From: Desulfobacteraceae bacterium
GTDB lineage: Bacteria; Desulfobacterota; Desulfobacteria; Desulfobacterales; Desulfobacteraceae
Assembly (NCBI GenBank): GCA_022712835.1
Contig: JAFLJU010000700.1
Coordinates: 1 to 6,624, forward strand
DNA length: 6,624 nucleotides
Direction of reading: 5' to 3'
Position 1 is the first letter of the stretch, and every line of letters starts with the position of its first letter. Under the pieces are notes generated by a model, which saw nothing but the letters and a program-made list of their open reading frames with translations, did not search any database and had not been told where the DNA came from. This document shows positions 1 to 6,624 of the stretch, piece by piece. The position numbers were made by a program, and so were the translations under genes.

Positions 1-356
1 TTTTCATCCAGCAGGGCCTTGGAGGACATGATCATTCCGGGAGAGCAAAAGCCGCACTGGATTCCCCCCTCGTCCACAAAAGACTGCTGGATCGGGTGGA
101 GGGTGCCGTCGGTAGCAGCAAGACCCTCTATGGTTTCCAGATGTTTCCCATGGGCTTCAATGGCCAGGTACAAACACGAATTGATGGCAAGTCCATCCAC
201 AATAACCGTGCAGGCACCGCATTCCCCATTGCCGCATCCCTCTTTTGTTCCGATGAGCCCCATTTCTTCTCGCAACAGGTGCAACAGAGTCCAATGGTCC
301 TTGATCTCATGGGAGATCTCATCCCCATTTAATAAAAACGATATTTGTGTCGTCAT
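1..356 (-). CDS. Molybdenum hydroxylase [2Fe-2S] small subunit (CoxS/XdhC-like), partial, C-terminus off the left edge
   Basis: Electron-transfer subunit of a xanthine oxidase-family molybdenum hydroxylase, carrying two [2Fe-2S] clusters that pass electrons from the molybdenum site to FAD; expected to be cytoplasmic. Reading from the ATG at 354-356 gives 118 codons before the edge, with no stop. The N-terminal plant-ferredoxin-like cluster has Cys41, Cys46, Cys49 (EGCGNGECGACTV) and Cys61, which is the family spacing C-x4-C-x2-C-x11-C. The second cluster domain begins at Cys101 and Cys104 (GIQCGFCSPGM); its last two cysteines should lie about 30 residues further on, outside the window. Family members are about 155-165 residues, so roughly 40 are missing. 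The start is supported by AAGGAACC about 7 bases upstream and by the normal position of Cys41. It begins 18 bp after the FAD subunit gene, in the usual M-then-S order of coxMSL-type operons. The family is certain; the substrate is not encoded in this subunit. Confidence 0.95.
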   Translation of the reverse strand, partial: MTTQISFLLNGDEISHEIKDHWTLLHLLREEMGLIGTKEGCGNGECGACTVIVDGLAINSCLYLAIEAHGKHLETIEGLAATDGTLHPIQQSFVDEGGIQCGFCSPGMIMSSKALLDE

Positions 357-374
357 GGATAAAGGTTCCTTTTT

Positions 375-1256
375 TTAACGTCCCTCTTTAATTTGTTCCA
401 GGCATTTAAGCCCCATGCGCCGGACATAAACCTGTATCATCTCTCGTCTGTGCCAGGCTTTTCCCCGGATACTGTCCCTGACCTTTGATTCCGCTGCAGC
501 CAGATTACCGGCTTCATTTAAAATTTCTTCAGTGATTTGTTTTCCCAACAGGAAATCTTCGGCATCATAGGCCCGCATGGGGGTGGGAGCCGCAACCCCT
601 AAACAGATCCTTGCTTTGATACAGGTTTTGTAATCGGAATTCAGAGTCAGCAGCACCCCGATACCGATGAGGGGAAGCTCCATGGCAGCCCTGCGGCCAA
701 ATTTTGTATATCCGCTTCCCGTATGGGGGGGCTGGGGAGGGATGGTGATTTTTTTAAGGATTTCTCCGGGTTTTAAAATCGTCTGATAGGGGGCAACGAA
801 CAGATCTAAAACCTTGCAGGACCGTTCACCGTCAGGACCGTGGAGAAGGGCCACCCCGTCCAGGGCAATCAAAGGGATGGCACCGTCGGCCGAAGGAACG
901 GCATTGATCAGGTTGCCGCCGATGGTCCCCACATTTCTGACCTGCAGGGATCCGATATTGGACACGGCATCAAAAATTATGGGGTAGTCCTTTTGGATCA
1001 TCAAGGATTTTTCCAGGGTGGAATGGGTGGTAAGCGCCCCGATGGACAGCTCGCCGGTTGCTTCATTTTTATGGAGATTATTCATCTCCGGTATCTTTTT
1101 TAAGGAAATCAAATAGTCGGGTTCCATCCATCCTTCTTTCACCTTCACAATTATATCCGTGCCCCCGGCCATGTATTTGGCCGTCTCACTGTGTTCACCA
1201 TAAAAAGAGATGGCAGCTTCAACACTTTCTGGAGATAGGTATTTAAATGCTTTCAT
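375..1256 (-). CDS. Molybdenum hydroxylase FAD-binding medium subunit (CoxM-like)
   Basis: FAD subunit of a xanthine dehydrogenase/CO dehydrogenase-family hydroxylase; it takes electrons from the [2Fe-2S] subunit and passes them to NAD+ or another acceptor. The protein is 293 residues, a normal length for CoxM types (about 280-300). The FAD-binding domain spans about residues 1-170, with the AGGTDI loop at 30-35 and the signature IGSLQVRNVGTIGGNL at 101-116, followed by NAVPSADGAIP. The C-terminal CO-dehydrogenase flavoprotein domain runs from about 180 to 285 and contains CLGVAAPTPMRA (218-229). The cysteine-rich loop that holds the extra [4Fe-4S] cluster in 4-hydroxybenzoyl-CoA reductase beta subunits is absent, which argues against that enzyme. 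AAGGAAGG lies 4 bases before the ATG. The gene starts 24 bp after the CoA ligase and is followed by the small subunit. Its substrate is inferred only from neighbours: an N-heteroaromatic acid such as indoleacetate fits a lactam hydrolase encoded in the same operon. Confidence 0.94.
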   Translation of the reverse strand: MKAFKYLSPESVEAAISFYGEHSETAKYMAGGTDIIVKVKEGWMEPDYLISLKKIPEMNNLHKNEATGELSIGALTTHSTLEKSLMIQKDYPIIFDAVSNIGSLQVRNVGTIGGNLINAVPSADGAIPLIALDGVALLHGPDGERSCKVLDLFVAPYQTILKPGEILKKITIPPQPPHTGSGYTKFGRRAAMELPLIGIGVLLTLNSDYKTCIKARICLGVAAPTPMRAYDAEDFLLGKQITEEILNEAGNLAAAESKVRDSIRGKAWHRREMIQVYVRRMGLKCLEQIKEGR

Positions 1257-1280
1257 AATCCTTCCTTTTATTCGCTTGTG

Positions 1281-2573
1281 TTATCCTCTTCTATTATCAA
1301 AGATACGCTGGGCTTTGCCGGGATACCTTGGCAAATCGCCATAGGTACAGATATTTGCATCACAGCTGACCATGATCTTTGAGTGCACAAGTTTCCTTAT
1401 TTTGTCCTGAATATCCTGGGTCCGGGTTATATCAAATCCCTGGGCCGCTTCTGCCTTAATGGTCATGGATTCCTTGCCGTCCGATTTTCTTTCAAGATGG
1501 AGCTGATACTCGCTGCCGGCTTCGGGAATGGCGGACAAGACTTCATCAATCTGGCCGGGGTAGATATTGACTCCCTTTAGAATGATCATGTCATCTGATC
1601 TTCCCATGATTCTGTCGTGCATGAACAGCAGGTTGCCGCAGGAACAGGGGGCGGTGATTTTCCGGGTGAGATCCCGGGTACGGTATCGGACCAGGGGGGT
1701 GGCCTCCTTGCAGAGCGTTGTCACCACCATTTCACCGATTTCACCCTCTTCAACGGGCATCAGGGTGTCCGGGTCCAGGATTTCAAGAATATATTTGTCA
1801 GCCCAATAATGAATTCCTTCATGGGAAGGACAGTCAATTCCTGTGCCCGGCCCGTAAAGTTCGGTCATGCCCGTGATGTCGAATATGTCCTCAAGCCCTA
1901 TTAGATCTTTGATCTTGGCCCGCATGGCATGGGAGCACCGTTCCGAGCCCAGGATGATTTTTTTAAGATTGATCTTGTCTCTGATTCCCCGTTTGTTGAT
2001 CTCCTCGGCCATGAGAAGGGCCATGGAAGCGGTGCAGCAAAATACCGTGGGCTGCAGGTCCACGAGAAACTGGCATTGCATGTCAATGTTGCCCGGTCCC
2101 ACGGGAATTGCCATGGCCCCCAATCGTTCGCATCCCAGCTGAAACCCCATGCCCGCCGTCCATACCCCATACCCCACCGCAATCTGGACCCGGTCTTTTG
2201 GGGTAAGGCCTGCCATTTCATAGCAACGGGCAAACATGTCAAACCAGTCATCCAGGTCTTTTTGGGTATAGGTCAGCACCTTGCGCTTGCCCGTGGTGCC
2301 CGAGGAGGCATGGATACGAACCACATCCCTTTCCGGTACAGACAATAGGGGAAAGGGATATCCTTCCTTAAGATCCTTGCCCGTGGTAAAGGGGAGGCGG
2401 CACAGGTCCGTAAGACAGGTGATGTCCCCGGGGAAAACCCCTGCCTCTTCAAAGTGTCGCCTGTAAAAGGAAGATCCATAAAAGGCATGGTCAATTGTCC
2501 ATTTGAGTCCTGCAAGCTGATGATCAAACAAAGCGTCAGAATCAGCAAATTTCGGCATAAAGCTTTTCTTCAT
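1281..2573 (-). CDS. Phenylacetate-CoA ligase family enzyme (AMP-forming aryl-acid CoA ligase)
   Basis: Adenylate-forming enzyme that makes a CoA thioester from an aromatic or aryl-alkanoic acid with ATP and CoA, releasing AMP and PPi. The 430-residue length is typical of PaaK. Visible motifs in order are the phosphate-binding SSGTTGKRK (90-98), TGMTELYGPG (234-243), CSCG (310-313, the CxCG common in this family), YRTRD (297-301), the hinge region GRSDDMIILKGVNIYP (324-339), and the C-terminal LPRYPGKAQRI, in which Lys420 is at the position expected for the catalytic lysine. AAGGAAG sits 7 bases before the ATG. The gene lies 24 bp after the hydantoinase B subunit and 24 bp before the hydroxylase FAD subunit. 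That company points to a heterocyclic or ring-opened substrate rather than the aerobic paa pathway, since no paaABCDE-like gene is present. The best functional parallel is IaaB, the indoleacetate-CoA ligase of anaerobic auxin degradation. Family certain; substrate inferred. Confidence 0.93.
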   Translation of the reverse strand: MKKSFMPKFADSDALFDHQLAGLKWTIDHAFYGSSFYRRHFEEAGVFPGDITCLTDLCRLPFTTGKDLKEGYPFPLLSVPERDVVRIHASSGTTGKRKVLTYTQKDLDDWFDMFARCYEMAGLTPKDRVQIAVGYGVWTAGMGFQLGCERLGAMAIPVGPGNIDMQCQFLVDLQPTVFCCTASMALLMAEEINKRGIRDKINLKKIILGSERCSHAMRAKIKDLIGLEDIFDITGMTELYGPGTGIDCPSHEGIHYWADKYILEILDPDTLMPVEEGEIGEMVVTTLCKEATPLVRYRTRDLTRKITAPCSCGNLLFMHDRIMGRSDDMIILKGVNIYPGQIDEVLSAIPEAGSEYQLHLERKSDGKESMTIKAEAAQGFDITRTQDIQDKIRKLVHSKIMVSCDANICTYGDLPRYPGKAQRIFDNRRG

Positions 2574-2583
2574 TTTTGGCTTC

Positions 2584-2609
2584 CTTAAATATTTTTCTTA
2601 AATATTTTC
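2584..2609 (-). repeat. 13-bp imperfect tandem duplication between the hydantoinase B and CoA ligase genes
   Basis: Two adjacent copies on the plus strand, CTTAAATATTTTT (2584-2596) and CTTAAATATTTTC (2597-2609), differ only in the last base. The copy nearer the hydantoinase gene supplies its final codons and TAA stop (2598-2600). The other copy runs into the AAGGAAG ribosome-binding site of the CoA ligase. This looks like a recent small slippage duplication that shaped the gene junction. Confidence 0.8.
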
Positions 2610-4331
2610 ACGGAGTTCCAGGGTTGAGCTCAGATCAAGGGTAAGAGAGTCAGGGTCAATGACAACACCGTAATCAAGTTTTGCACGTTCAATACTGACA
2701 TATCCATATTGTACATCCTGTTCAACGGCTGTGGGGTCGCGTTCAAAGGGGTCTCCATATCCGCCGCCCCCGGCGCTGACAAAGGAAATACTGTCTCCTG
2801 CATCACAAAAGGTCAGTGTGCTTGGGTTGGCCGAGTCTTTGTTTTTTAAAAATTGGGCCTTTGCGCCGTTTTTTCCCTTGAATATCCCCTGGGGCGGATA
2901 GATAAAGCGGCCGGCCTGGACGGCAATGGTGGTTCTTTTGTTCCCTTCAGGCGATCGGATGATCATCTGCCGGCCGATGCCCCCGCGTTGTTTGCCAGGG
3001 CCGCCTGAATCCATGACAAGTCCCCTTGATTCAACCATCAAAGGGGTGTCGCTTTCAAGGATCTCCACCGGGGTGTTGGCCCCGTTGGCCGGAAAAATGG
3101 CGCAATGATGGCCGTCGGTCCTGGACGAAGCCCCCATGCCGCCGCCCCGGATGATCATGGTGTGCCAGGGGGTTCCATCGGCCCTTTTGCCGTAGAAGAT
3201 ATTGGTCTGGGCAGGGGTGCCGCCGGAACCGGCAATGATATTGTCAGGGGTGGCGGGCGCCAGGGCATTAAAGACCATTTCCGTCATGAAATGGCCCACC
3301 TGCATCCGGGCAGCCACGGCAGAAGGGAAAGAGCAGTTAATGATCGTCCCTTTTGGCGCTGTCATTCGAATGGGCCGGATGGCCCCTTCGTTGATGGGAA
3401 TATCCGGATCAAAGGCTGATTTTATGGCCATGAACACATAGGCATAGGTGAAATTGTAAACCACATTCACCCCCCAGTCCACCTGGTCCGAGGTGCCGGT
3501 AAAATCCACGAGGATATCCGAATCGTCTACGGTCACGGTCAGTTTGATGGTTATGTCGGGTTTGTTCCCCGCCCCTTCGATGATACCGGTATGGGGATAC
3601 ACCCCGTCTGGTATCTTTTTGATGGCCGAGCGCATGGAGCCTTCTGTTCTGTCGATGATGTCGTCTGCCAGGTCATCCAGGGTGGTAAGATGTTCATCCT
3701 CCATCATTTCAATAACCTTTTGGGCGCAGACATGGTTGGCTGATACCTGGGACCGGATGTCGCCTGTTACCTCTTCAGGGGTTCTCACATTCCACCGGAT
3801 CATGTTGAGAATCTCCTCATTGAGGGTTCCGGCATCATAGAGCTTGGTCACCGGGATGTAGATGCCTTCTTCAAAAACCTCGCGATTGTCCGAGGATACA
3901 CGGCCCCCGATATCCGAGTGATGGAAGACACAGGCCGTAAAGGCCACGGGAACGCCCTGAAAAAAAATCGGGCTGAGCACACAGACATCATTGAGGTGTC
4001 CTGCCAGAAGCCAGGGATCATTGACAATAAAGACATCCCCCTCCCTGTAATCTGCCAGGGGAATCGCGGTGATGATTTTTTTAACCCCCAATGCCATGGC
4101 ACCGGCCTGGCCCGGTGTGCAAAAGGTTCCCTGGACCAGTTCCTGTCCCCGGCTGTCCGTGAACATACAGGTATAATCATGGGCATCCCGCAGCAGGCTT
4201 GAAAAGGCGGTTCTTGCAACCGAGGCATCTGCCTCGTCCACAATGGAGACCAGCCGCCGCCAGAGAATCTCAAGGGTAATGGGGTCAAATTTGTCTTTAT
4301 TAATATTATTATTATTTGCCTGATTCGTCAT
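2598..4331 (-). CDS. Hydantoinase/5-oxoprolinase B subunit (HyuB family)
   Basis: Partner of the ATPase-like A subunit in ATP-dependent hydrolysis of cyclic amides (N-methylhydantoin, 5-oxoproline and related lactams). The protein is 577 residues, within the usual HyuB range and well short of the roughly 770-residue acetone carboxylase alpha subunit. Family landmarks are FDPITLEILWRRL (15-27), NDPWLLAGHLNDV (104-116) and HHSDIGG (137-143), whose Asp and His residues are candidate metal ligands by analogy with the carboxylase relatives, then GTSDQVDWGVNV (279-290) and the glycine-rich C-terminal GGGGYGDPFERD (521-532). The first 14 residues are an Asn-rich extension (NNNNIN) encoded by an AAT repeat. 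The ATG lies inside the last codons of the A subunit (20-bp overlap), with AAGGGG upstream, so translation is probably coupled. No other ATG occurs before the conserved FDPIT start. No small third subunit gene, as in acetone carboxylase, is present. I infer opening of a 2-oxo-indole type lactam; other lactams remain possible. Confidence 0.94.
   Translation of the reverse strand: MTNQANNNNINKDKFDPITLEILWRRLVSIVDEADASVARTAFSSLLRDAHDYTCMFTDSRGQELVQGTFCTPGQAGAMALGVKKIITAIPLADYREGDVFIVNDPWLLAGHLNDVCVLSPIFFQGVPVAFTACVFHHSDIGGRVSSDNREVFEEGIYIPVTKLYDAGTLNEEILNMIRWNVRTPEEVTGDIRSQVSANHVCAQKVIEMMEDEHLTTLDDLADDIIDRTEGSMRSAIKKIPDGVYPHTGIIEGAGNKPDITIKLTVTVDDSDILVDFTGTSDQVDWGVNVVYNFTYAYVFMAIKSAFDPDIPINEGAIRPIRMTAPKGTIINCSFPSAVAARMQVGHFMTEMVFNALAPATPDNIIAGSGGTPAQTNIFYGKRADGTPWHTMIIRGGGMGASSRTDGHHCAIFPANGANTPVEILESDTPLMVESRGLVMDSGGPGKQRGGIGRQMIIRSPEGNKRTTIAVQAGRFIYPPQGIFKGKNGAKAQFLKNKDSANPSTLTFCDAGDSISFVSAGGGGYGDPFERDPTAVEQDVQYGYVSIERAKLDYGVVIDPDSLTLDLSSTLELRENI
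4303..4317 (-). repeat. AAT triplet repeat at the hydantoinase A/B gene overlap
   Basis: On the gene strand the sequence AAATAATAATAATAT is read in two frames. In the A-subunit frame it gives the final Lys and three tandem TAA stops (4306-4314). In the B-subunit frame it gives the four-Asn run at residues 6-9. Gain or loss of whole triplets would keep both genes intact and change only the length of the B-subunit Asn linker. Confidence 0.85.
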
Positions 4332-6441
4332 GCTGTTTCCCCTTCACCCGATTTCCATCGTTAAAGTCAATCCAGATAAAACCGAATTCATCCACCCGAG
4401 CATCGGCATCTTCTCCCATGACAATGGTGGATTCGCGCTCTTCAATAATGGCTGGCCCCGGTATCCTGGCACCGGGGAAAAGTTTGGATCGGTCATAGAC
4501 GGTAAAGGGAATATAGTCCTTTTGGATAATGGAAAATGCCCGGCGCTGGCCTTTGATACAGGCGGTTATATCCCTGTTAGTATGGGTCAGTTTTGGAATG
4601 GAAAAAGGCCGCTTGGGCAGGCTGGCCCTCACCTTGAAGGTCACCAGCTCCACCGGGGTTTCCGTATAGGTCCGGCCGTAGAGCCGTTTGTATTCCGTGT
4701 CAAACAATGCCCGGATATCCTGGCGTGAAAATCTGTCAAAAGGTTTGTTTTCAATGCCCAGGTCTGTTTCAGCCCCCTGGCCCACAAACCGCATCAACAG
4801 GGTTCTTTCAAACAGGATCTCCTGGCCCCGGGCCGCATCCTCCAGAATACCGGCACTTTCTTGTTCCAGTTCCTGGAAAAGCGCTTCAAGTGCTTTAAAG
4901 TCTGCCGCGTCCAGCCCCACCCGATGGCTGCGGGAAAGGTCAAATGCCACAGGAGCCGTGAAAAATCCCAGGGCAGAGCCCACCCCTGCCAAGGGGGGGA
5001 CCAGGATGGCCTTCGCCCCGATTTTTCTGGCAAGGCCGTAGGCATGAACAGGTCCTGCTCCCCCAAAGGCCGACATGGTTATGCTTGAAGGGTTGCCGCC
5101 TTTTTCCGCAATATGGGTTTTGGCAGCGGCAGCCATGGTTTCATTGATCAGATCATGGATGCCGAAGGCCGCCTCCACCAGGGTGGTTCCCAGGGGATCG
5201 GCTATTTTTTCCTGGATGGCTTGTTTTGAAAGCTCGATGTCAAGGGTCATGGTGCCCCCCAGAAAAAAGTCGGGATCCAGATATCCCAGCACCAGATCCG
5301 CATCCGTCACCGTGGGGTTAACACCTCCCTGGATGTAACAGGCAGGTCCGGGGTCTGCGCCCGCGCTTTCAGGACCCACCCCGAGAAGCCCAAGGCGGTT
5401 GATCTTGGCAATGCTGCCGCCGCCGGCACCGATCTCCATGAGGTCTACCACCGGTACCTGGATGGGCAGTCCGCTCCCCTTTTTAAACCGCTGGACCCGG
5501 CCCACCTCAAAGGTGGAAACAAGGCCGGCATGACCTTTTTGTATCAAACAGGATTTGGCGGTGGTGCCCCCCATGTCAAAACAGAACATGTCCCGTATAT
5601 CAAACATCCGTCCATAATACTGGGAGGCGATCACGGCGGCCGTGGGGCCGGATTCAATGATCCGGACGGGAAATTCCCGGGCCGTTTCCACCGAGGTGAT
5701 CCCCCCGGAAGACAGCATGATAAATAGTTTTCCGTTAAACCCCATGGAAGCAAGTCTGGCCGTCAGTTTTTTTAAGTATCGATAGGTAATGGGTTTGACA
5801 TAGGCATTTACCGCCGTGGTGCAGGAGCGCTCATATTCCCGGATCTGGGGAATAACCTCAAAGGAGGAGGATAAAAAAAGATCCGGGGCTTCCCGCTCAA
5901 TGATTTCTTTTATCCTTCGTTCATTGACAGGATTTTCATAAGAATTGATAAAGCAGACCGCCAGGGATTCGATGCCGGTTCCCTTGAAACGGTTGAGTAC
6001 TTCTAACACCTGCTTTTCTTCCACCTCTTTTAACACCCTGCCGTCGGATGTGATCCGTTCGTCAACCTCCATGCGAAGGGCCCGGGGTACAATGGGTTCG
6101 GGATACTCGCTGAAAATATCATAGGCGTCGTAGCGGATTTCACGACCCAGCTCCAGCACATCCCTGAACCCTTTGGTGGTGATCAACCCGGTTTTGGCTC
6201 CTTTTCGTTCAATGATGGCATTAATGACCAGGGTGGTGCCGTGGATAACCTCTTCCACCCGGTCCATGAAATTGGGCAGGGTTTCGGCCAGCTGGCAAAT
6301 ACCCTGTTCCACGGCATCTGAAGGGTCAGAAGGGGTGGTCAGGCACTTGTTTGTATGAAATTGCCCTGTTCGATTATTGATCAGTACAAAATCTGTAAAC
6401 GTGCCGCCAATATCACACCCCAGACGATAAGTCTCTTCCAA
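4312..6441 (-). CDS. Hydantoinase/5-oxoprolinase A subunit (HyuA family), TTG start
   Basis: ATPase-like subunit of the hydantoinase/oxoprolinase/acetone carboxylase family, thought to phosphorylate the substrate amide or enol so that the B subunit can complete the reaction. The protein is 709 residues, near the family norm of about 690. The N-terminal domain (about 5-185) opens with the nucleotide-binding DIGGTFTD (10-17) and has HGTTLVINA (67-75). The central actin-like domain (about 200-495) shows SSGGITS (244-250), ESGPTAAV (263-270), DMGGTTAK (289-296), GAGGGSIA (338-345), GADPGPACY (361-369) and AFGGAGPVHAYGLA (458-471). The C-terminal domain ends with GPAIIEERESTIVM (662-675). The start is TTG (6439-6441): AAGGAGGT lies 5 bases upstream and DIGGTFTD falls at the usual residue 10. 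The gene ends in three consecutive in-frame TAA codons and overlaps the B subunit by 20 bp. Acetone or acetophenone carboxylase subunits are homologous alternatives, less likely given the short B subunit and no gamma subunit. Confidence 0.94.
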   Translation of the reverse strand: MEETYRLGCDIGGTFTDFVLINNRTGQFHTNKCLTTPSDPSDAVEQGICQLAETLPNFMDRVEEVIHGTTLVINAIIERKGAKTGLITTKGFRDVLELGREIRYDAYDIFSEYPEPIVPRALRMEVDERITSDGRVLKEVEEKQVLEVLNRFKGTGIESLAVCFINSYENPVNERRIKEIIEREAPDLFLSSSFEVIPQIREYERSCTTAVNAYVKPITYRYLKKLTARLASMGFNGKLFIMLSSGGITSVETAREFPVRIIESGPTAAVIASQYYGRMFDIRDMFCFDMGGTTAKSCLIQKGHAGLVSTFEVGRVQRFKKGSGLPIQVPVVDLMEIGAGGGSIAKINRLGLLGVGPESAGADPGPACYIQGGVNPTVTDADLVLGYLDPDFFLGGTMTLDIELSKQAIQEKIADPLGTTLVEAAFGIHDLINETMAAAAKTHIAEKGGNPSSITMSAFGGAGPVHAYGLARKIGAKAILVPPLAGVGSALGFFTAPVAFDLSRSHRVGLDAADFKALEALFQELEQESAGILEDAARGQEILFERTLLMRFVGQGAETDLGIENKPFDRFSRQDIRALFDTEYKRLYGRTYTETPVELVTFKVRASLPKRPFSIPKLTHTNRDITACIKGQRRAFSIIQKDYIPFTVYDRSKLFPGARIPGPAIIEERESTIVMGEDADARVDEFGFIWIDFNDGNRVKGKQHDESGK

Positions 6442-6557
6442 CGGCCACCTCCTTAATTTGTGCGAATCATTTATATGAAACTTCGGTCAAGGTATTGCAA
6501 TCATAAGCGTTTCATTTTTTGTTGTGGCCGGAGCAAATAGGTTACCGGCCATGCCGG
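6442..6557 (-). other. Intergenic leader between the mutase and hydantoinase A genes
   Basis: This 116-bp stretch is the only sizeable gap in the window. It contains the inner hairpin described separately, a 7-bp inverted repeat (ATGAAAC/GTTTCAT, plus-strand 6475-6481 and 6509-6515) flanking the 8-bp palindrome ATTGCAAT (6494-6501), and the Shine-Dalgarno sequence of the next gene. On the gene strand a TATAAA hexamer lies 19 bases after TTGCAA, a possible but poorly spaced sigma70-type pair. No sigma54 GG-N10-GC signature was found. It could hold an internal promoter and operator, or be only a spacer in one long transcript. No small ORF with a convincing start was seen. Confidence 0.4.
6447..6454 (-). 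promoter_or_regulatory. Consensus Shine-Dalgarno sequence that fixes the TTG start of the hydantoinase A subunit
   Basis: On the gene strand the sequence AAGGAGGT is followed by GGCCG and then TTG. This perfect match to the anti-Shine-Dalgarno region is the strongest in the window. It identifies the non-ATG start, because no ATG or GTG in frame lies upstream within the gap. The next conserved residues (YRLGCDIGGTFTD) follow directly. Confidence 0.85.
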
Positions 6558-6573
6558 TTAGTAAAACTCCGGC
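6527..6573 (-). repeat. Nested inverted repeat overlapping the end of the mutase gene
   Basis: An outer 7-bp stem pairs 6527-6533 with 6567-6573 (GCCGGAG with CTCCGGC on the gene strand). Inside it, 6544-6549 pairs with 6553-6558 as ACCGGC, loop ATG, GCCGGT. The outer arm lies in the last mutase codons and the inner arm includes part of its TAA stop. No run of U follows on the gene strand, so it is not a classic intrinsic terminator. It may be an RNA-processing or stability element between two parts of one transcript. Confidence 0.5.
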
Positions 6574-6624
6574 TCATTCCATTCACCAAAACTTTGTCTG
6601 AACACCTCTGCCATCTCCCCCACC
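6558..6624 (-). CDS. Probable C-terminus of a B12-dependent acyl-CoA mutase large subunit (methylmalonyl-CoA mutase family), partial
   Basis: Only the last 21 codons and the TAA stop are in the window. The tail begins VGEMAEVFRQSFGEW and continues NEPEFY. The pattern G-E-[MI]-x3-[FL]-R-x2-[FW]-G-E-[WY] resembles the conserved end of the catalytic subunit of acyl-CoA mutases (methylmalonyl-, isobutyryl- and 2-hydroxyisobutyryl-CoA mutases), which has the form GEI...LR..FGEY. If that is right, the adenosylcobalamin-binding domain would be a separate small subunit or lie elsewhere, because this end is too short and of the wrong type for a cobalamin domain. Such a mutase would act after CoA activation; IaaGH in anaerobic indoleacetate degradation is the parallel. 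The call rests on very little sequence and is recognised from memory of the family. Confidence 0.5.
   Translation of the reverse strand, partial: VGEMAEVFRQSFGEWNEPEFY

What the first reader, a model, noticed from the sequence alone, without database searches (positions are those of the whole stretch)
1..6624. Gene set matches an anaerobic indoleacetate (auxin) degradation module, apparently outside its described hosts
Seen: Mo-hydroxylase subunits, HyuAB, a PaaK-type ligase and a probable acyl-CoA mutase tail on one strand with minimal spacing. Known: the iaa cluster of Aromatoleum/Azoarcus combines a Mo-dependent dehydrogenase, a hydantoinase-like lactamase, a CoA ligase, a CoA transferase and a B12-dependent mutase to convert indoleacetate to 2-aminobenzoyl-CoA. 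Inferred: this operon does the same or handles a related N-heterocycle (oxindole-type lactam). The moderate GC content suggests a host other than those betaproteobacteria, possibly a sulfate reducer.
Basis: partly seen in the sequence, partly recalled or inferred. Interest (0 to 1): 0.75.

Follow-up and report, generated by a model that had tools for sequence, protein, structure and literature searches.

The report
Sulfate-reducer operon for degrading plant auxin
The window holds part of a gene cluster that seabed sulfate-reducing bacteria probably use to break down the plant hormone indoleacetate without oxygen; such clusters were already predicted in this group, but comparing its relatives revealed two interchangeable ways of doing one step, which looks new.

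Summary
On one strand lie the last 21 codons of a B12-mutase large subunit, HyuA, HyuB, a PaaK-type CoA ligase, CoxM and a cut CoxS. The closest locus (L003, a Desulfobacula MAG; 85.5% DNA identity over 6510 aligned positions) continues into CoxL, the small mutase subunit, MeaB, a family III CoA transferase, a dedicated ETF and IaaF, an acyl-CoA dehydrogenase with the published GGG signature; final beta-oxidation genes are not in view there. HyuA falls in one clade with HyuA of Aromatoleum-like clusters (100/100), apart from 12 other HyuA. So this is an iaa (indoleacetate) operon of a sulfate reducer, but not outside its described hosts: a 2021 paper already mentions predicted iaa operons in sulfate reducers. 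The window is a new member of a known kind. The new part is in its kin: in 71 genomes, IaaF (32) and an MmdA-type carboxyltransferase (29) were never found together (10 had neither), and in eight independent pairs on the HyuA tree one goes when the other comes. The carboxyltransferase usually comes with an MCAD-like dehydrogenase and has an altered acyl pocket, suggesting that IaaF's oxidative decarboxylation is replaced by decarboxylation, then dehydrogenation.

The parts
6558..6624 (-). 3' end of the B12-dependent acyl-CoA mutase large subunit (predicted (2-aminophenyl)succinyl-CoA / (2-aminobenzyl)malonyl-CoA mutase, one subunit of IaaGH)
   Evidence: 19 of 21 C-terminal residues identical to the L003 mutase; L003 protein is Pfam MM_CoA_mutase
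6442..6557 (-). 116-nt spacer with a GGAGGTG ribosome-binding-site-like sequence before the TTG start of HyuA; 89 nt longer than in L003
   Evidence: no significant fold (z -1.14), promoter or terminator match or Rfam match
4312..6441 (-). HyuA: alpha subunit of an ATP-dependent lactamase (predicted 2-oxoindoleacetyl-CoA gamma-lactamase)
   Evidence: Pfam; clade with Aromatoleum-like iaa HyuA, 100/100
2598..4331 (-). HyuB: beta subunit of the same lactamase
   Evidence: Pfam Hydantoinase_B, profile 1-519/519; 577 aa fits the Hyd-type length rule of PMC5214803 (passages)
1281..2573 (-). PaaK-type CoA ligase (predicted indoleacetate-CoA ligase, functional counterpart of IaaB)
   Evidence: best solved relatives are phenylacetate-CoA ligases; NCBIfam PaaK 389.5 bits against a cut-off of 646.3; only short motif matches to the 511-aa ligase of L051
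375..1256 (-). CoxM: FAD subunit of a molybdenum hydroxylase (predicted C2 hydroxylation of the indole ring)
   Evidence: Pfam; syntenic in relatives
3..356 (-). CoxS: 2[2Fe-2S] subunit of the same molybdenum hydroxylase, cut by the window start; CoxL expected next
   Evidence: Pfam Fer2, Fer2_2; CoxL follows in L003

Best explanation
The window is the middle of an anaerobic indoleacetate degradation (iaa) operon of a Desulfobacula-like sulfate reducer. Predicted route: the PaaK-type ligase makes indoleacetyl-CoA (in near relatives IorAB may also make it directly from indolepyruvate, that is from tryptophan); the Mo-hydroxylase CoxLMS puts oxygen on C2 of the indole ring; HyuAB opens the lactam with ATP, giving (2-aminophenyl)succinyl-CoA; a family III CoA transferase moves CoA to the other carboxyl group; the B12 mutase makes (2-aminobenzyl)malonyl-CoA; IaaF with its own ETF oxidises and decarboxylates this to 2-aminocinnamoyl-CoA; beta-oxidation then gives 2-aminobenzoyl-CoA. 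Shown here: the window genes, their clade, and the presence and order of the other genes in relatives. Taken from literature on Aromatoleum (PMC8360864, partly recalled): the reactions. Inferred: that these proteins do the same, and that the window's genome is of the IaaF type, as its two nearest rows on the HyuA tree (L003, L002) are.
For: Gene content and order. The nearest locus, L003, carries IorA-IorB-CaiB-EtfB-Fd/EtfA-IaaF-GntR-MeaB-MutS-MutL-HyuA-HyuB-PaaK-CoxM-CoxS-CoxL-DctPQM, 85.5% DNA identity over 6510 aligned positions. Its acyl-CoA dehydrogenase has the GGG motif that PMC8360864 gives for the IaaF subclass and lies in one clade (SH-aLRT 99) with P0214, which its source names benzylmalonyl-CoA dehydrogenase of Aromatoleum sp. 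and whose first seven residues equal the published EbN1 iaaF primer as I translated it by hand. Window HyuA is in a 20-row iaa clade (100/100) apart from 12 other HyuA. dsrA over the cut-off in 17 of 21 related genomes, 0 of 14 controls.
Against: No activity was tested. CoxL, CoA transferase, small mutase subunit and IaaF are outside the window and known only from relatives. The ligase differs in kind from that of an Aromatoleum-like cluster, so its substrate is less certain. EbN1's own iaa genes could not be fetched (0 of 399 genomes with the primer sequence). L004, in the same six-row HyuA clade as the window, is of the other (carboxyltransferase) type. Genes for the last beta-oxidation steps were not seen next to L003. 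dsrA also exceeds its cut-off in L051's genome, a Pseudomonadota MAG, so it does not by itself single out sulfate reducers.
Confidence: 0.86

Rival explanations
1. The operon degrades another N-heterocycle that passes through a lactam (an oxindole, a substituted indole acid or a related compound), with the same chemistry.
For: The ligase is not the type of an Aromatoleum-like cluster, and PaaK relatives take several aryl acids (recalled); no NCBIfam model reaches its cut-off for any of the five window proteins scanned.
Against: CoA transferase, mutase and IaaF kept together in relatives fit a succinyl-CoA to malonyl-CoA rearrangement after lactam opening, which needs an acetic acid side chain beside the lactam (inference); IorAB next to the operon in L003 and others points to arylpyruvate/arylacetyl-CoA.
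Confidence: 0.1
2. HyuAB is an ordinary hydantoinase, 5-oxoprolinase, caprolactamase or ketone carboxylase, and the neighbours are coincidental.
For: NCBIfam's best families are caprolactamase CapA/CapB (552.2 and 261.8 bits); the best solved relatives of HyuA are labelled 5-oxoprolinase and N-methylhydantoinase.
Against: All these NCBIfam scores are far below the curated cut-offs of 1000 or more; HyuA sits in a separate 100/100 clade with iaa-cluster HyuA; subunit lengths and the lack of a third (gamma) gene argue against Acx/Apc by the criteria of PMC5214803 (passages); synteny with mutase and CoA transferase is widespread among the relatives.
Confidence: 0.02
3. The window's genome uses the other variant: no IaaF, but the MmdA-type carboxyltransferase plus an MCAD-like dehydrogenase.
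For: L004, in the same six-row clade, has the carboxyltransferase and no IaaF was found; the trait needs 9 changes on the HyuA tree.
Against: Window HyuA is sister to L003 (100/100) and next to L002 (95/87), both with IaaF.
Confidence: 0.13

Closest known systems
iaa operon of Aromatoleum aromaticum EbN1 / Azoarcus evansii (Ebenau-Jehle 2012 and Schuhle 2016: recalled and cited through PMC8360864; Schuhle 2021 = PMC8360864, three of six parts and passages read)
   Same: Mo-hydroxylase, HyuAB-type lactamase, CoA ligase, CoA transferase, B12 mutase and, in the window's sister L003, IaaF with the GGG motif
   Different: PaaK-type instead of the ligase type seen in Aromatoleum-like clusters; TRAP transporter, MeaB, dedicated ETF with ferredoxin domain and IorAB beside the operon in L003
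Predicted iaa operons of sulfate reducers (Desulfatiglans anilini and others; tree rows NaphS2 and Desulfocarbo) and Ferroglobus, as mentioned in PMC8360864
   Same: Anaerobic hosts; a non-bifurcating ETF paralogue with iaaF, like the ETF genes next to IaaF in L003, L021, L030, L033, L044, L064, L065
   Different: Could not be compared gene by gene; Schuhle 2016 is not held. I do not know whether the ligase type or the IaaF-less variant was noted there.
Alkylmalonyl-CoA branch of anaerobic alkane degradation (Desulfatibacillum alkenivorans AK-01; passage in PMC8163825)
   Same: Ligase, methylmalonyl-CoA mutase and methylmalonyl-CoA carboxyltransferase postulated in series before beta-oxidation: the model for the IaaF-less variant
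   Different: Alkyl, not aryl; no lactamase or Mo-hydroxylase (recalled)
Caprolactamase CapAB and other Hyd-type ATP-dependent lactamases
   Same: Two-subunit ATP-dependent lactam hydrolase architecture
   Different: Scores well below the caprolactamase cut-offs

Membership tests
iaa (indoleacetate) operon | HyuAB-type gamma-lactamase of the iaa clade | tested here: met
   window HyuA in a 20-row iaa clade, 100/100, against 12 other HyuA; EbN1's own protein was not available
iaa (indoleacetate) operon | Mo-hydroxylase subunits in the operon | tested here: met
   CoxM and CoxS in the window; CoxL only in relatives
iaa (indoleacetate) operon | B12 mutase (IaaGH) | tested here: met
   only the 21-residue C-terminus is in the window, 19 of 21 identical to L003; small subunit only in relatives
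iaa (indoleacetate) operon | CoA ligase orthologous to that of the Aromatoleum-like clusters (IaaB) | tested here: not met
   PaaK-type; only short motif matches to the 511-aa ligase of L051. That this ligase corresponds to IaaB is itself inferred
iaa (indoleacetate) operon | family III CoA transferase (IaaL) | not testable with these tools
   outside the window; present in L003
iaa (indoleacetate) operon | IaaF with the GGG motif in place of YEG | not testable with these tools
   outside the window; met in the sister L003 and in L002
iaa (indoleacetate) operon | turnover of indoleacetate | not testable with these tools
   needs enzymes or cultures
[quoted passage not shown] beta about 150 aa shorter than Acx-beta (about 720 aa) | tested here: met
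   HyuA 709 aa, HyuB 577 aa, next gene is a ligase
Acetone/acetophenone carboxylase | third, gamma subunit gene and longer subunits; NCBIfam Apc cut-offs | tested here: not met
   Apc models at most 310.4 bits against cut-offs of 1250-1500
Caprolactamase CapAB | NCBIfam equivalog cut-offs (1000 bits) | tested here: not met
   552.2 and 261.8 bits
Phenylacetate-CoA ligase PaaK (TIGR02155) | equivalog cut-off 646.3 bits | tested here: not met
   389.5 bits: PaaK-like, not PaaK
Methylmalonyl-CoA decarboxylase alpha, MmdA (TIGR01117), for the carboxyltransferase of relatives | subfamily cut-off 998.8 bits | tested here: not met
   719 bits, the only NCBIfam family at E<=1e-40: works like, not filed as

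The most novel reading that the evidence does not exclude
Indoleacetate operons of this family come in two interchangeable types. In one, IaaF (with its own ETF in the sulfate reducers where the interval is in view) oxidises and decarboxylates (2-aminobenzyl)malonyl-CoA in one step. In the other, the ETF-IaaF cassette is missing and a biotin-dependent MmdA-type carboxyltransferase with an altered acyl pocket, usually accompanied by an MCAD-like acyl-CoA dehydrogenase, first removes the carboxyl group (possibly conserving its energy), and the dehydrogenase then oxidises 3-(2-aminophenyl)propionyl-CoA. The two modules have been exchanged repeatedly (eight independent pairs on the HyuA tree). The window itself probably belongs to the IaaF type.
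Probability: 0.68. Interest if true: 0.58.

Novelty: new member of a known kind. Interest (0 to 1): 0.42.

Why it matters
Marine sulfate reducers, apparently also symbionts of the gutless worm Olavius (MAGs L057, L064), look equipped to mineralise auxin and perhaps tryptophan. PMC8360864 leaves open how IaaF is re-oxidised in Aromatoleum; genomes that do without IaaF by splitting its reaction into decarboxylation and dehydrogenation would show that the step can be decoupled, and give a direct enzyme test. If the decarboxylation runs through biotin, energy lost in the IaaF route could be saved, which would matter to organisms with little energy to spend.

Tried and rejected
No whole genome is held for the window, so its own flanks could not be read; a 98% identical HyuA (P0001) lies on an 11,329-base contig of another source that could not be fetched. 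I tried to find the EbN1 iaa genes by the published iaaF primer in 399 genomes of one order: 0 hits; the anchor became P0214.

GGG alone is not proof of IaaF. Of the best IaaF-query hits in the 19 carboxyltransferase-type genomes, 15 read YEG, 2 (L082, L097) read GGG and 2 (L099, L100) were not recognised by my pattern; lower-ranked hits were not checked. L082 and L097 are 38% and 37% identical to the L021 IaaF and fall outside the IaaF clade, but as a long-branch pair their place is unsure. Nine candidates of 41-47% identity were counted as IaaF because of the motif and the clade; L053's (L107, also seen as L081) is a long branch.

I considered that the carboxyltransferase/dehydrogenase pair serves glutaryl-CoA. 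Against it: the carboxyltransferase scores 590 bits to a PCC beta subunit but 103 to glutaconyl-CoA decarboxylase; the dehydrogenase is nearer to an MCAD-like structure (311 bits) than to glutaryl-CoA dehydrogenase (246 bits); and both operon types should need glutaryl-CoA enzymes alike (inference). For it: NCBIfam ranks the Desulfococcus-type glutaryl-CoA dehydrogenase second for the dehydrogenase (298 bits, cut-off 470), after acryloyl-CoA reductase. I looked for a membrane decarboxylase partner (PF03977): in 20 of 21 genomes, both types, missing in L036's, so uninformative. No biotin carrier was recognised by eye next to the pair; those neighbours were not scanned. Term searches of the main texts of two papers on Desulfobacteraceae/Desulfatiglans found no indole or tryptophan. 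Folding the spacer, promoter and terminator scans and Rfam gave nothing. Structure prediction was not used.
Full report
Observation. The window encodes, on the minus strand, the end of a mutase large subunit, HyuA, HyuB, a PaaK-type ligase, CoxM and a truncated CoxS. The genes are tightly packed except for a 116-nt spacer after the mutase. The 21-residue mutase tail matches the C-terminus of the L003 mutase at 19 of 21 positions.

Surroundings. No genome is held for the window. A scan of GTDB species genomes with HyuA gave 72 loci, mostly from Desulfobacula, Desulfotignum and other Desulfobacterales or deltaproteobacterial MAGs, plus some named only Proteobacteria, a few Pseudomonadota, one KSB1, two Chloroflexota and one Syntrophorhabdaceae. 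In L003, the nearest, the order is IorA, IorB, family III CoA transferase, EtfB, ferredoxin-EtfA, acyl-CoA dehydrogenase, GntR, MeaB, small and large mutase subunits, HyuA, HyuB, PaaK, CoxM, CoxS, CoxL, DctP, DctQ, DctM (domains of 10 of these proteins). Window and L003 are 85.5% identical over 6510 aligned DNA positions. dsrA exceeds its cut-off in 17 of 21 genomes tested and in 0 of 14 control genomes (8 of the 14 ring below the cut-off); the four without are those of L058, L036, L046 and L050, and one with it is L051's, a Pseudomonadota MAG.

Is it iaa? PMC8360864 (parts 1, 3 and 4 of 6 and passages read) gives the A. aromaticum pathway and says that all IaaF-subclass enzymes carry GGG in place of YEG. 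Of 22 acyl-CoA dehydrogenases in my longest-ORF calls on the 72 loci, the 11 nearest to the L021 one read GGG and the other 11 YEG. The GGG ones share a clade (SH-aLRT 99) with the Aromatoleum protein P0214. Window HyuA lies with the HyuA of Pseudomonadota clusters (L048, L050, L052, L070) in a clade of 20 rows, supported 100/100, against 12 other HyuA proteins: five plasmid rows, six paralogues from the same genomes, and L072. Eleven of these 12 are long branches over 1.9 and the twelfth 1.46, and I chose which 20 iaa rows to include. EbN1's own HyuA is not in the tree. So the function reading rests on clade, synteny and one named anchor protein, not on assay.

Ligase. In four Pseudomonadota loci (L050, L051, L052, L070) the cluster holds a ligase of about 511 aa; that of L051 belongs to the fatty-acyl/o-succinylbenzoate group, and one Desulfobacterota locus, L033, has a 35% relative of it besides its PaaK. 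The window PaaK has only short motif matches to the L051 ligase. The best solved relatives of the window ligase are phenylacetate-CoA ligases. A ORF of 518-528 aa resembling such ligases lies near the carboxyltransferase in L116 and L123 (the L116 protein scanned, the L123 one judged by eye).

Known or new? PMC8360864 already mentions predicted iaa operons in sulfate reducers and Ferroglobus with an ETF paralogue and an iaaF orthologue. The window is therefore a new member. Ebenau-Jehle 2012 and Schuhle 2016 are not held.

A second type among the relatives. In many loci the EtfB-EtfA-IaaF cassette is missing between CoA transferase and GntR. Where both flanking genes are seen: 19 of 19 carboxyltransferase-type loci lack it; of 11 IaaF-type loci, 7 have it, three (L050, L051, L070) have another gene order with IaaF in the cluster, and L053 has its candidate IaaF elsewhere in the genome. 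Searches with the L021 IaaF, the L014 carboxyltransferase and the L014 MCAD-like dehydrogenase in all 71 genomes behind the 72 loci (L001 and L044 share one) gave: carboxyltransferase at 70-100% identity in 29 genomes, in none of which an IaaF was found; IaaF in 32 genomes, none with a carboxyltransferase hit above 53% or at E<=1e-185; neither in 10 (L020, L025, L032, L035, L039, L045, L049, L061, L068, L072; L020 has a partial dehydrogenase at 92%). The 32 are 22 at 60-100% identity, nine at 41-47% (L046, L048, L050-L053, L059, L069, L070) and L063, whose gene is cut by the contig end and seen only in the locus; all 32 read GGG (11, 5, 3, 12, 1). Genome completeness is not known, so absences are weaker than presences, and I set the identity limits after seeing the two-peaked distribution. 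The E-value limits differed between calls (IaaF: 1e-60, 1e-80, 1e-85). The dehydrogenase is less strict: at least 73% in 27 of 29 carboxyltransferase genomes (not found in those of L019 and L060), and at 67-70% also in two IaaF genomes (L037, L041) and 66% in L061, which has neither.

Relatedness. On the HyuA tree (66 rows including the window; 7 of 72 loci left out for short or broken HyuA) the trait needs 9 changes. On well-supported branches there are 8 independent pairs that differ in IaaF, and in all 8 the carboxyltransferase goes the opposite way (sign test p 0.0078; 58 rows). Adding rows with neither gene gives on average 6.9 opposite and 1.1 undecided, median p 0.0156, range 0.0078-0.0625. 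HyuA may itself move between genomes, so this counts changes along HyuA's history.

What the pair looks like. The carboxyltransferase is Pfam Carboxyl_trans and its only NCBIfam match at E<=1e-40 is MmdA, below cut-off. Sequences from 20 of the 29 genomes were in hand, and nine weaker PCC-type hits were fetched for comparison. The Tyr of the GYG-type loop is Val in 18 of the 18 carboxyltransferases that cover it (Tyr in 9 of 9 PCC-type), and GG[SA]Y[LID] is GGAVM in 20 of 20 (0 of 9). By offset from the alignments these are near positions 143 and 406-407 of Methylorubrum PCC (numbering inferred); PMC10729300 (passages) describes residue 143, there a His, as proposed to contact the acyl group, and PMC9889269 (passages) uses PCC D407I to carboxylate acetyl-CoA. 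Loss of two tyrosines would suit a bulky aryl group; this is inference. The pair lies inside the operon in L014 and L058, next to IorAB in several others, and divergent in L036. In the alkane degrader AK-01 a ligase, a mutase and a carboxyltransferase are postulated in the same order (PMC8163825, passage). No paper describing the replacement appeared in searches of the held library (52 showed 20 of 39 papers, 82 showed 15 of 821, nearly all on athletics); subscription papers are mostly missing there.

IorAB is in view beside 2 of 32 IaaF-type and 11 of 29 carboxyltransferase-type loci; many loci end before that place, so these are not rates. It suggests direct entry of indolepyruvate as indoleacetyl-CoA; PMC5109826 (passages) proposes such a role for IorAB with phenylpyruvate in Desulfococcus.

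Verdict. The window: an iaa operon of a sulfate reducer, confidence 0.86, a new member of a known kind. Its relatives: a probable new variant of the pathway, probability 0.68, not in the window itself.

Noticed in passing
L014:1966-4751, L058:2074-4860, L005, L008, L015, L022, L024, L028, L036, L038, L112-L117, L119-L121 (carboxyltransferase alone in L118, L122, L123): MmdA-type carboxyltransferase, mostly beside an MCAD-like dehydrogenase, in genomes where no IaaF was found.
   Followed up: yes
window 6442-6557: The spacer between mutase and HyuA is 116 nt, against 27 nt in L003; it begins with a short CCGGC/GCCGG palindrome and has no significant fold, promoter, terminator or Rfam match.
   Followed up: partly
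L010:21756-22085, and L006, L009, L017, L018 and others downstream of the iaa genes: A second FAD-subunit-like gene of the Mo-hydroxylase family follows the operon at 63-76% identity to the L010 fragment in several loci, in some with further CoxS-like (47-49%) and CoxL-like (36-37%) genes: a possible second Mo-hydroxylase.
   Followed up: no
L029:15710-16900; similar-looking ORFs in L057 and, cut, in L027: A thiolase-like gene (Pfam in L029 only) sits after PaaK and, in L029 and L057, before CoxM; it may be the thiolase of the last step.
   Followed up: partly
L038:15710-17734: A fused 3-hydroxyacyl-CoA dehydrogenase/enoyl-CoA hydratase follows HyuB and the carboxyltransferase; ORFs of the same length (674 aa) follow HyuB in L040 and L056.
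   Followed up: partly
L001 and L044: Two different iaa loci lie in one MAG (CSMAG_2491, G427), on contigs of coverage 7 and 14: two copies or a mixed bin.
   Followed up: no
L017, upstream of HyuA at 10001: Several unassigned ORFs (725, 364, 201, 185, 277 and 856 aa) stand between the mutase and HyuA, as if inserted.
   Followed up: no
L057, L064: Two MAGs associated with Olavius worms carry the two different operon types (Delta 1 carboxyltransferase type, Delta 4 IaaF type).
   Followed up: no
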